Shown piece after piece: positions 3,142-63,613 of a stretch of 64,000 nucleotides of DNA. How positions within the stretch are numbered: position 1 is the first letter of the stretch; each line of letters starts with the position of its first letter. The notes beneath the pieces were generated by a model that saw only the letters and a program-made list of their open reading frames with translations, did not search any database and had not been told where the DNA came from. This stretch comes from Pontibacter sp. G13 (GTDB lineage Bacteria; Bacteroidota; Bacteroidia; J057), in contig NZ_CP134696.1 of NCBI RefSeq assembly GCF_031851795.1, forward strand, positions 310,001-374,000, read 5' to 3'. Both the position numbers and the translations under genes were made by a program.

Positions 3142-3975
3142 CTACAGACGATGCCATGATTGTTGATCGGAATTTCCTCGGAGGAATTTAAATCGCCCAA
3201 ATCCGTCAAAGGACACAATCAAGTAATTGCCTCTCTGCCAATACCCCATGGACAACGAGATAATCTTAGACCAATTCTTGTGAAGGAGATCGGGCATGTC
3301 TGCTTCTTTCCCAACGAATTCATATCTAGCTCCATGCGGTTGCCAATGATCTATGTCAAACACTCCCTTTGAAATAAAATCAACCAATCCCACTGCCATA
3401 GCCCCATCCACCTTTCTGTATTTTTGAGCGACTGACCAAGCACTTCTTGTTGCCCCGTAAGGGTCCAATCCATTTGCCAATTGCCGCTGTATCGGAAAAA
3501 TGAAGACCGTCCCCAAAGGGCGAGTAGGATCAATGGGTGGAGCACCTTGCGCAATCACCATCTCCTGATCCATGAAGGTGGAATACAACCCGGCATTGCA
3601 ATTGAGGGAAGGCCCATTTTGGCTTTGTGTCAATAGGTTGATGGCAGCTGATTCCACGGCATTCAGTTCATTGGTGTCCTTGTCCAGTCCACAAGCCAAG
3701 ATGAACCAGTCCACATCTTTGCCCGCTGACCAAATGTCTAGGATCATCCGCACTTTGGGAGATGCCTGAATAGCCGGCTCGTTCAAGGCGTTTTCAGCTT
3801 CGATAAAATGGTCGAATACCCGATTTACTTGAGTGGCTTGTCCAATGTAAAAGACCTTGTGATCACGGGGGTCTCTGAGCGCATAGACATAGTTGCCCAG
3901 AATTTTTTGCTGTAAATGGTCAAAACGTCTAAAATCTCTATTCTGAGGTTCGATCTGCATCTTCGTTGATTCCAT
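3142..3975 (-). CDS. GIY-YIG-like (LEM-3-type) domain protein
   Basis: A 277-residue cytoplasmic protein. An N-terminal domain (about 25-130) starts with NYVYALRDPRDHKVFYIGQA: the YVYAL...FYIGQ spacing matches the two strands of GIY-YIG nucleases of the LEM-3-like subtype, and ESAAINLLTQ has the Glu position expected for the metal ligand. A second part (about 150-277, from GTVFIFPIQRQLANGLDPYG onward) has no recognised fold; it could be a recognition domain. Single GIY-YIG proteins of this type can be DNA-repair or defence nucleases, but no partner gene is adjacent, so the role stays open. The gene is convergent with the outer-membrane gene, and the intergenic stretch upstream holds a structured repeat. 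Confidence 0.7.
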   Translation of the reverse strand: MESTKMQIEPQNRDFRRFDHLQQKILGNYVYALRDPRDHKVFYIGQATQVNRVFDHFIEAENALNEPAIQASPKVRMILDIWSAGKDVDWFILACGLDKDTNELNAVESAAINLLTQSQNGPSLNCNAGLYSTFMDQEMVIAQGAPPIDPTRPLGTVFIFPIQRQLANGLDPYGATRSAWSVAQKYRKVDGAMAVGLVDFISKGVFDIDHWQPHGARYEFVGKEADMPDLLHKNWSKIISLSMGYWQRGNYLIVSFDGFGRFKFLRGNSDQQSWHRL

Positions 3976-4060: not shown

Positions 4061-4248
4061 GTGCGGCTGGTTGGTGTAGCGTGAGGTGCCTGGAGTGGCC
4101 GACCATTGGGAGGAGTCCCCGATCTGTGGGCGGCGATCTATCGCCCACAGATCGGGACCGAGCATCAGCGAGCACGCAAGGGAGCGACCCAGCGGCGAAT
4201 ATGCCCAGCGAGAGATGTGAACTCCGGTACGCTGGGGCACGCCCAAAT
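4061..4248 (-). repeat. structured intergenic repeat, copy A (inverted)
   Basis: This copy lies in the 3976-4457 gap, otherwise without recognisable genes. Read on the minus strand it begins ATTTGGGCGTGCCCC and ends CAACCAGCCGCAC. Its first stem pairs CCCAGCG (4230-4236) with CGCTGGG (4188-4194), minus-strand reading. Its central hairpin is a perfect 15-bp stem, 4118-4132 with 4142-4156. The same conserved ends and stem positions recur at 38303, 51136 and 63402, with partial similarity at 63683. The short open frames crossing it are not credible genes. Confidence 0.8.
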
Positions 4249-15099: not shown

Positions 15100-16278
15100 C
15101 TACAGTGGAGTGTCTAGCTGCAATTCCTTGATGCGTGATTGAAGGCTATAGGTAGCTGGGTCAATGTCATATGCCCGCCTATAGGCTTGGAGCGCGTCAT
15201 CCAATCGCCCTTCTAACTGATACAGAATGCCCCGTTCTAAGTGTCCGTATGGATTCTTCGGATCGAGGACAATTGATTTGTCGGCATCTTCGGCAGCTTG
15301 GTTCAATTTCCCTGTTCCTCTCCATGTAGCCGCTCTAGTGGAATAGACATAGGAAGATCCAGGCGTCAAGTCAGCCAATGTTGATAAATCCTCAAAGGCA
15401 AGTGTCCATTCTTGCATCTCGTTGTAGGTGCAGGCACGATTGATCAGGCTTTGTTCATGATTTGGGTACCACCCTAGGACTTCGTCATACAATTCTTTGG
15501 CTTGAGGGTGCATGCCCTGCATAGAATACCAGTAGCCAGCCATCGCTAGATCATTGAGTTGTGGTGTACAAGATTTTTGAAGTGCTTCAAAAGCATCCAA
15601 GATCTTGGATCCATCCCCAAGGTGCAGGTAGTTGTAAAATACGATCTGCAGGAGCAGCGGATCCTCAACGTTTTCCTCGATCAGCTCTTTCAACAATTCA
15701 TTGGATTCATCGAATTGGTTTGCTTGATGGAGGTTGAAAGCTTGTTCGAACTTTTCCGGAAGATGCATTCTACTGATTAACCGCCGTATTTGTTCCCCAT
15801 CGTTGAACACGAATCTTCCTTCCGACAACAACACGGGGGCACGGTGGGGAGTGAGATTTTGAATCATTGTACGGGCCGCATGGAAGACGATAAGGATCGA
15901 GAACCATTTCAAGAAGGGGTCCGACTCATAGGAAAAAGACACAAGGGCCAATAGGATACTGATGAGAAAGGGGAAAATGGGTCCAGCAAGAACGTGAATC
16001 ATCTCGAGTGTGAGAGGCAAATCCCCTATTCCTTCCGGAACGCAAAGACCTTGGCTGAAGTATTGGAATCTCGGAGGCATGATCACTTGGATTCGGCCAA
16101 ATTTCATGCTGGCCAGATCCTCTTCCTCCCCATAAGTTCCCAAGTATAGAGATACCTGGCCCTTGGTAAAGAGCAAGATCGGGATCGCATGCCCTAACTC
16201 ATGCAAAATGGTCATGCCAGAATGCCCAATAAACAACAGAATAATTCCTAATCCGATATCCCAAATAGTGGTTTCCAT
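15100..16278 (-). CDS. membrane HELGH (M50-like) protease-like protein with TPRs
   Basis: A 392-residue protein. A first transmembrane helix (about 5-22) is followed by MTILHELGHAIPILLFT, where HELGH (26-30) is the zinc-binding motif of M50-like intramembrane metalloproteases. LTLEMIHVLAGPIFPFLISI and further helices make up a membrane domain to about residue 150. The C-terminal 220 residues are TPR-like helical pairs, for example LAMAGYWYSMQGMHPQAKEL and PYGHLERGILYQLEGRLDDA. An M50-type fold fused to cytoplasmic or periplasmic TPRs suggests regulated proteolysis or a scaffold. The third ligand (DG motif of site-2 proteases) is not clear, so activity is uncertain. It is convergent with the SnoaL gene, 15 bp apart. 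Confidence 0.7.
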   Translation of the reverse strand: METTIWDIGLGIILLFIGHSGMTILHELGHAIPILLFTKGQVSLYLGTYGEEEDLASMKFGRIQVIMPPRFQYFSQGLCVPEGIGDLPLTLEMIHVLAGPIFPFLISILLALVSFSYESDPFLKWFSILIVFHAARTMIQNLTPHRAPVLLSEGRFVFNDGEQIRRLISRMHLPEKFEQAFNLHQANQFDESNELLKELIEENVEDPLLLQIVFYNYLHLGDGSKILDAFEALQKSCTPQLNDLAMAGYWYSMQGMHPQAKELYDEVLGWYPNHEQSLINRACTYNEMQEWTLAFEDLSTLADLTPGSSYVYSTRAATWRGTGKLNQAAEDADKSIVLDPKNPYGHLERGILYQLEGRLDDALQAYRRAYDIDPATYSLQSRIKELQLDTPL

Positions 16279-16445
16279 GTCGATGGTCGCGTATTCTTTC
16301 CCCTTCTGATCGAAAGCGTCATCCTATTCTGCCCGACATTATTCTATTCTCTGGTCGCTTTCTTTCAGAAAATGAATTTAATCATCCACAATTTACTTCC
16401 CCAATTAAATTGTTTCTATCCTCAGGATCATCTAAATGGCCGTAT

Positions 16446-38302: not shown

Positions 38303-38512
38303 TTTGGGCGTACCCTGGCGTGCTGGACAGGAAGGTTCCGCTTGTCAGGATGGTCGCCAGGCCGGGCTGTTCAGGGGTAACCGTCCTTCGGAGGCTTCGC
38401 TTTTGGCCGTCTTTTCACCGGAAAATTAGACCTCACCTGACCTGATCAGAGCCTCGGACCTCGCCTGAGGGCTCGCCCTTACCATCCCTTACGCCGCACG
38501 TGCCAGCCGCAC
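38303..38512 (+). repeat. structured intergenic repeat, copy B
   Basis: In the 38078-38608 gap, this copy begins TTTGGGCGTACCC and ends GTGCCAGCCGCAC. Stem 1 pairs CCTGGCG (38314-38320) with CGCCAGG (38355-38361). The second hairpin is imperfect (GAGCC to GGCTC pairing around 38450-38475). No gene is credible in this gap; the short open frames are antisense or cross the repeat. Confidence 0.78.
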
Positions 38513-51135: not shown

Positions 51136-51322
51136 ATTTGGGCGTATCCCGGCGTGGAAGATTCATTCCTCGCCGGGATTTTTGAGTCGCCGGGTCAGCC
51201 CCTTTCAGACTCCCTAGCGGTCGGTCCAAGGTCAGTCGGCGCAAAAGCGGGCGCCTCCTGACCTTGGACGCCTCCTGACGTCGGCCCTTCCAGGCACTTT
51301 ACGCCGCACAAATCAGCCGCAC
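51136..51322 (+). repeat. structured intergenic repeat, copy C
   Basis: It begins ATTTGGGCGTATCCC and ends AAATCAGCCGCAC. Stem 1 is CCCGGCG (51148-51154) with CGCCGGG (51171-51177), and the second hairpin is a perfect 12-bp stem GTCCAAGGTCAG (51224-51235) with CTGACCTTGGAC (51258-51269). It fills the start of the 591-bp gap 51111-51701, whose second half shows no gene and is probably the leader of the next gene. Stem 1 also acts as the terminator of the sulfatase gene. Confidence 0.82.
51146..51183 (+). terminator. rho-independent terminator formed by repeat stem 1
   Basis: ATCCCGGCG (51146-51154) pairs with CGCCGGGAT (51171-51179), with additional pairs inside, and is followed by TTTTT. It lies about 35 bases after the sulfatase stop and lies within the repeat copy. 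Confidence 0.75.
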
Positions 51323-63401: not shown

Positions 63402-63613
63402 ATTTGGGCGTGCCCCCGTGTGCTGGGCAACCAGTTCCTTCCCCGGAATATGAGCCACGGGGTCTGGCCCTTCCGGACTCGCTAGCGCTCGGTCGGTGAA
63501 AATATGGCAGCCCAAACATCCGGGTAAAATCCAACAGTTTTACCCACGATCAACCCGTAAAATTCCACCGACTGAATCCTACAGACCCATCACGCCACAC
63601 CTGCCAGCCGCAC
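63402..63613 (+). repeat. structured intergenic repeat, copy D
   Basis: It begins ATTTGGGCGTGCCCC and ends CTGCCAGCCGCAC. Stem 1 is CCCCGTG (63414-63420) with CACGGGG (63456-63462). The second hairpin is nested: TCGGTCGGTG (63489-63498) with CACCGACTGA (63566-63575), and GGGTAAAA (63522-63529) with TTTTACCC (63538-63545). It lies in the 686-bp gap 63128-63813, whose first part (63128-63401) is an AT-rich leader of the beta-barrel gene with no gene seen. Confidence 0.8.

What the first reader, a model, noticed from the sequence alone, without database searches (positions are those of the whole stretch)
51136..51322. Intergenic repeat family with covarying hairpins, four full copies
Copies at 4061-4248 (minus), 38303-38512, 51136-51322 and 63402-63613 share a GGGCGT start after TTT and an AGCCGCAC end, with lengths of 187-212 bp. 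Their first stem differs in sequence yet pairs in each: CCCAGCG/CGCTGGG, CCTGGCG/CGCCAGG, CCCGGCG/CGCCGGG and CCCCGTG/CACGGGG. Compensatory changes like this are what selection on RNA structure produces. All copies are between genes. I recall similar GGGCGT-type elements in other Bacteroidota but cannot verify. Inference: a structured RNA, a terminator-type element or a mobile REP-like repeat.
Basis: partly seen in the sequence, partly recalled or inferred. Interest (0 to 1): 0.75.

Follow-up and report, generated by a model that had tools for sequence, protein, structure and literature searches.

The report
Dispersed folding DNA repeat, Flavo-1 kin
The four sequences are copies of a repeat present several hundred times in this genome and related to a family databases list as a small RNA (Flavo-1); its pairing pattern suggests that the folded form that matters is DNA, and that it spreads as a mobile or REP-like repeat rather than working as an RNA gene.

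Summary
In detail: all four copies and their first stems are as described. They belong to a large interspersed family. The fold is a three-way junction (P1, P2, P3) with strong covariation. Homologues across Bacteroidia carry the core TTTGGGCGT..CCC-hairpin-GGGTCGGGC..hairpin..ATCCCTCACGC. Rfam's Flavo-1 (RF01705, "sRNA") matches the inner part of these homologues, on the opposite strand; the window copies do not hit it. The RNA reading is disfavoured. Non-Watson-Crick cells are as often A-C (11) as G-T (9) among 1184; tRNA stems gave 11 G-T to 1 A-C. At orthologous sites in two close Flavobacterium-type species, hairpins are swapped or inverted while flanks stay ~90-100% identical. A published transcriptome found Flavo-1 hits sense, antisense and untranscribed alike. 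No target duplication, terminator T-run or partner gene was found. Best reading: a lineage-amplified, REP/MITE-like DNA element whose folded single strand is recognised by an unidentified enzyme, with hairpins renewed by template switching or copy-to-copy conversion. Mobility and the enzyme are inferred, not shown.

The parts
51137..51322 (+). copy at the finding's coordinates (TTTGGGCGT...AGCCGCAC)
   Evidence: sequence; R1 covariance model 80.9 bits, E 5.6e-20
51141..51146 (+). P1 5' arm GGCGTA, closing stem of the three-way junction
   Evidence: sequence; P1 defined on 18 copies
51300..51305 (+). P1 3' arm TACGCC
   Evidence: sequence; last pair varies G-C, C-G or A-T and was always paired in the 18 copies
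51148..51154 (+). P2 5' arm CCCGGCG
   Evidence: P2
51188..51194 (+). P2 3' arm CGCCGGG; a second copy of this arm at about 51171-51177 is followed by ATTTTT, a terminator-like feature of this copy only
   Evidence: 1 of 66 copies has a T-rich tail
51197..51201 (+). P3 5' arm (imperfect in this copy; partner about 51294-51298)
   Evidence: position from the R1 structure; P3 has the most compensatory pairs of the family
51224..51235 (+). inner variable hairpin, 5' arm GTCCAAGGTCAG
   Evidence: sequence shows directly
51258..51269 (+). inner variable hairpin, 3' arm CTGACCTTGGAC
   Evidence: sequence shows directly
51314..51322 (+). conserved 3' tail CAGCCGCAC, seen in the own-genome type only
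   Evidence: absent from the Bacteroidia homologues inspected
4061..4247 (-). second copy, between a GIY-YIG-domain gene and a glycoside hydrolase gene (divergent genes)
   Evidence: 95.8 bits; neighbours
38303..38512 (+). third copy, between an amidohydrolase gene and an aldose epimerase gene
   Evidence: 87.8 bits
63403..63613 (+). fourth copy, beyond the upstream end of an outer-membrane beta-barrel gene
   Evidence: 100 bits

Best explanation
It is an interspersed non-coding DNA element that spreads within genomes, REP/MITE-like in life style. When the region is single-stranded (replication, transfer), one strand folds into a three-way junction: P1 closes the element, P2 and the P3/P4 arm branch off. 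I infer that an unidentified enzyme encoded elsewhere recognises this fold together with the conserved words GGGCGT, GGGTCGGGC and ATCCC..ACGC, and inserts copies between genes without duplicating the target. Once in place, hairpins keep perfect pairing and change wholesale through polymerase template switching or conversion from other copies. This mimics the covariation of a structured RNA. Shown: copy number, fold, strand symmetry, hairpin replacement, patchy amplification, intergenic placement. Inferred: single-stranded recognition, the enzyme, active mobility.
For: Copy number: at least 150 hits, cap reached, and 20 in 464 kb, with copies on the 93 kb contig C3 too. Patchy amplification: with the core pattern 11 of 12 same-family genomes have none; in the Flavobacterium-type genus most have dozens but four have none. 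Covariation: 97.8% of cells paired, 45 double-change cells against 11.5 in shuffles. Strand-symmetric: G-T 9, A-C 11, Watson-Crick 1144 of 1184 cells in 66 copies; 40 Bacteroidia-type copies gave P1 40/40 Watson-Crick, P2 G-T 4 and A-C 5, P4 G-T 3 and A-C 3; tRNA control G-T 11, A-C 1 of 180. Hairpin turnover: inner hairpins replaced, inverted at the apex or lost at orthologous sites of G463/G471; arm homogenisation and spacer inversion is the published signature of template switching (PMC8604942). Site gain or loss: one gene 3' end carries the element in G184, G470, G443 and G449 but not in most of the 30 species compared; one G463 element site holds an unrelated palindromic repeat in G471. 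Intergenic: 62 of 65. No target duplication. Also in Spirochaetes and Fibrobacterota records and viral contigs.
Against: No precise empty site was obtained. Most sites compared between G463 and G471 are shared, so movement is not frequent at that distance. No partner enzyme was found: Y1 transposase, GIY-YIG and 23S_rRNA_IVP fail co-occurrence, no neighbour family recurs, and no element sits beside the Y1 genes of this genome. The strong bias to convergent gene pairs in this genome (24 convergent, 2 divergent) could instead reflect a host function or simple tolerance.
Confidence: 0.6

Rival explanations
1. Structured RNA (sRNA or cis-acting RNA), as Rfam lists Flavo-1: the transcript folds into the three-way junction and works as RNA.
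For: Strong covariation; Rfam family RF01705 typed 'Gene; sRNA' matches 15 of 20 homologous loci tested; Weinberg et al. 2010 rated it 'probably' an RNA (PMC2864571).
Against: G-T and A-C deviations equal whereas tRNA shows 11:1. Hundreds of copies, mostly absent in close relatives. F. psychrophilum transcriptome: Flavo-1 hits indistinctly sense or antisense of transcribed regions and many outside them (PMC9723704). Rfam models the strand opposite to the GGGCGT orientation. In codirectional gene settings orientation is 17 sense to 10 antisense, not clearly biased.
Confidence: 0.12
2. Host-beneficial DNA or transcription element, like E. coli BIMEs: binding site for topoisomerase or a nucleoid protein, or a factor-dependent bidirectional terminator between convergent genes.
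For: Convergent gene settings 24 of 53 against about 10 expected and divergent 2 of 53; 12 of 13 nearby element pairs are tail-to-tail (tested); the finding's own copy has a hairpin arm followed by ATTTTT soon after a stop codon.
Against: Only 1 of 66 copies has a T-run. About 20 Flavobacterium-type copies showed no such gene-setting bias. Absent from most relatives. Avoidance of promoters explains the bias without a function.
Confidence: 0.16
3. Old, immobile repeats whose pairing is kept only by a mutational bias (template switching on quasi-palindromes), with no protein recognising the fold.
For: Template switching homogenises arms and inverts spacers (PMC8604942, PMC8794818); both effects are seen at shared sites.
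Against: Does not explain the nearly invariant words GGGCGT, GGGTCGGGC and ATCCCTCACGC shared across classes and into other phyla, compensations in the short, distant P1 and P3 arms, or lineage-specific amplification.
Confidence: 0.12

Closest known systems
Flavo-1 RNA motif (Rfam RF01705)
   Same: Same family by homology for the Bacteroidia copies: matches up to 64.5 bits (gathering score 42) on 15 of 20 loci, with dozens of copies per Flavobacterium-type genome.
   Different: Rfam's 76-position model covers only the P1-P3-P4 part on the opposite strand and lacks the P2 hairpin. Window copies do not reach it: no gathering hit in the whole window, none at E 10 for the main copy. They carry an extra 3' tail CCAGCCGCAC.
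REP elements / BIMEs / REPINs with RAYT (TnpA-REP)
   Same: Hundreds of intergenic, palindromic, non-coding copies; paired opposite orientations; patchy amplification.
   Different: REPs are a single 20-40 bp hairpin with GTAG or CGTC at one end (PMC3733652). This is 90-220 bp with a three-way junction, and no Y1 transposase is linked to it. CGTC REPs also lack a dedicated transposase.
MITEs (non-autonomous DDE transposons)
   Same: Short, non-coding, dispersed, terminal pairing (P1).
   Different: No target duplication; terminal complementarity of only about 6 bp; internal fold conserved.
Integron attC sites
   Same: Conserved structure with variable sequence; work as a folded single strand (general knowledge).
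   Different: Dispersed singly rather than in cassette arrays and no attC core words seen; an integrase link was not tested.

Membership tests
Flavo-1 (RF01705) | match to the covariance model above the gathering score | tested here: not met
   window copies: no hit at gathering, main copy none at E 10. Homologues in other Bacteroidia: met
Flavo-1 (RF01705) | shared core words and junction with bona fide Flavo-1 loci | tested here: met
   GGGCGT..CC..GGGTCGGGC shared; own genome also holds a classical-type copy at L110 16479-16653
structured non-coding RNA | G-U pairs tolerated, deviations asymmetric between strands | tested here: not met
   G-T 9 vs A-C 11 against tRNA 11 vs 1
structured non-coding RNA | discrete strand-specific transcript | not testable with these tools
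   published data for Flavo-1 in F. psychrophilum argue against it (PMC9723704)
intrinsic terminator | GC hairpin followed by a T-run | tested here: not met
   1 of 66 copies
REP element with RAYT | Y1 transposase present wherever copies are and flanked by copies | tested here: not met
   G477, G482, G435, G461, G466 have 30 or more copies and no PF01797; no R1 hit beside the Y1 genes of this genome
MITE | target site duplication | tested here: not met
   best z 2.7 over several hundred boundary choices in 65 own copies
mobile element (general) | precise empty site or presence/absence in close relatives | tested here: inconclusive
   species-level presence/absence and one replaced site, no exact junction

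The most novel reading that the evidence does not exclude
A new class of mobile DNA recognised as a folded three-way-junction single strand, shared by Bacteroidota, Spirochaetes and Fibrobacterota, moved by a still unknown enzyme, whose hairpin modules are exchanged between copies; Rfam's Flavo-1 'sRNA' would be a misfiled fragment of it.
Probability: 0.3. Interest if true: 0.8.

Novelty: new variant of a known kind. Interest (0 to 1): 0.55.

Why it matters
A motif listed for over a decade as a probable small RNA, with dozens of copies in most Flavobacterium-type genomes tested, looks like DNA. It is also a clear case in which strong covariation may arise without RNA function, and counting G-T against A-C mismatches is a simple general test for this. 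If an enzyme recognises the fold, it would be an unknown and widespread mobilisation system.

Tried and rejected
Y1/RAYT transposase as partner: absent from several genomes rich in copies, present in genomes without, not beside copies in this genome (two of 20 Flavobacterium-type Y1 loci have a Flavo-1 hit). Small GIY-YIG nuclease, prompted by the neighbour of the first copy: fails in G477 and G425. Four-helix-bundle 23S_rRNA_IVP: absent from the own genome. Recurrent neighbour genes in 125 loci: only orthologous housekeeping neighbours. Plasmid and phage collections by blastn: no match. Target duplications: none in the own genome (the script stopped before the Flavobacterium-type set). Terminator: no T-run. 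Literature searches for the core words found no description of the whole repeat. Exact junction of an empty site: not obtained.

Full report
Observation. A pattern of both ends finds 18 further copies in the 7.67 Mb genome and none for the reversed control. A complete look at 464 kb gives 20 copies, 43 per Mb, hence roughly 330 in the genome, an extrapolation. Five of the 150 lie on the 93 kb contig C3.

Anatomy. Three helices are supported on the 18 copies. P1 (GGCGTG/CACGCC) closes the element, and its last pair is G-C, C-G or A-T, always paired. P2 (CCC+4/4+GGG) has three pairs with changes on both sides. P3 (5 pairs) has all five with changes on both sides. Overall 97.8% of cells pair, against 82% in shuffles and 38-47% when partners are slid. 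Inside P3 lies a further hairpin of very variable sequence. In this genome a tail CCAGCCGCAC follows P1.

Family. The same core is found in one genome of the family and two of the order with R1, and with the pattern GGGCGTNNCC..GGGTCGGGC in many genomes of the class; matches in the other classes look like chance, similar in number to the reversed control. Named organisms include Flavobacterium, Pedobacter, Chryseobacterium, Epilithonimonas, Algoriphagus and Segetibacter, and also records labelled Treponema, Spirochaetales, Fibrobacter and Chitinivibrionales, plus five viral contigs (several are metagenome bins, so contamination is possible). Rfam's Flavo-1 (RF01705) matches 15 of 20 such loci, always on the strand opposite to GGGCGT and without P2. 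Window copies do not reach Flavo-1, but the own genome also holds a classical-type copy, which links the two.

RNA or DNA. If an RNA fold were selected, G-U would be tolerated on the working strand and appear as G-T, or as A-C if the other strand works. In 66 own copies the P1-P3 cells are Watson-Crick 1144, G-T 9, A-C 11, other 20. In 40 Bacteroidia-type copies the variable P1 pair is Watson-Crick 40 of 40, and inner stems have G-T 3 and A-C 3. tRNA stems from the same sequence set have G-T 11 and A-C 1 of 180 (Fisher p 9e-6 for the G-T share; small control). The alignment was fitted to the structure, which if anything favours G-U over A-C. The published F. psychrophilum transcriptome found Flavo-1 hits indistinctly sense or antisense of transcribed regions and many outside them (PMC9723704). 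Both point to DNA.

How the pairs change. Two species of the Flavobacterium-type genus (G463, G471; 96% identical over one 3 kb locus) share most sites. At the shared sites examined most hairpins are the same. In L237/L262, L255/L254, L243/L283 and L267/L287 the inner hairpin is a different hairpin, in L237/L262 with the apex inverted (TTCGAGTGCCTCA to TGAGGCACTCGAA), and in L271/L277 it is lost, while flanks stay about 90-100% identical. Arm homogenisation and spacer inversion are known results of template switching (PMC8604942; PMC8794818). So the covariation of the variable hairpins need not come from stepwise selection. The copies in this pair belong largely to a subfamily with another outer stem (AGCGAATGGTTTG..CAAACCATTCGCT).

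Mobility. For it: lineage amplification (11 of 12 family relatives have no core match), presence or absence at one orthologous gene end within the genus, one site where G463 has the element and G471 an unrelated palindrome, and no target duplication. Against or missing: no exact empty site, and most sites are shared in the close pair. Partner tests for Y1 transposase, GIY-YIG and 23S_rRNA_IVP all failed, and no neighbour family recurs.

Placement. In the own genome 62 of 65 copies are intergenic. Convergent settings are 24, codirectional 27, divergent 2, against about 10, 33 and 10 expected by intergenic length (a simple gene caller was used). Of 13 nearby pairs 12 are tail-to-tail (p). In codirectional settings orientation is 17 sense to 10 antisense. 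In about 20 Flavobacterium-type copies there is no such bias. A terminator role is not a family feature, although the finding's own copy has an arm followed by ATTTTT just after a stop codon.

Verdict. A real, strongly structured, high-copy repeat family related to Flavo-1. The best reading is a REP/MITE-like DNA element recognised as a folded strand by an unknown factor. The RNA reading is disfavoured but not excluded.

Noticed in passing
L097 1498-1684/1773-1939; L009 1498-1660/1670-1837; L006 1272-1482/1501-1661; L014 1130-1316/1501-1668: Copies in the own genome often lie in tail-to-tail pairs 10-190 bp apart, often one long-type and one short-type copy.
   Followed up: partly
window 3142-3975 (-): 277-aa protein with a LEM-3-like GIY-YIG domain directly beside the first copy.
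   Followed up: partly
L277 about 15861-16326 against L271 2458-2517: An insert in G471, absent from G463, appears to encode a four-helix-bundle (23S_rRNA_IVP) protein; such genes are multi-copy in many of these genomes.
   Followed up: no
L272 8872-9001: Another palindromic repeat (GCCACAGATTCACAG..CTGTGAATCTGTGGC) occupies the site where G463 has the Flavo-1-type element.
   Followed up: no
L432 6429-6463, L435 12886-12922: Two viral contigs carry nearly the same element beside a homologous small gene, a possible vehicle between hosts.
   Followed up: no
L363, L388, L354, L356, L316, L373, L365: Elements with good P2 pairing in records labelled Treponema, Spirochaetes, Fibrobacter and Chitinivibrionales.
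   Followed up: partly
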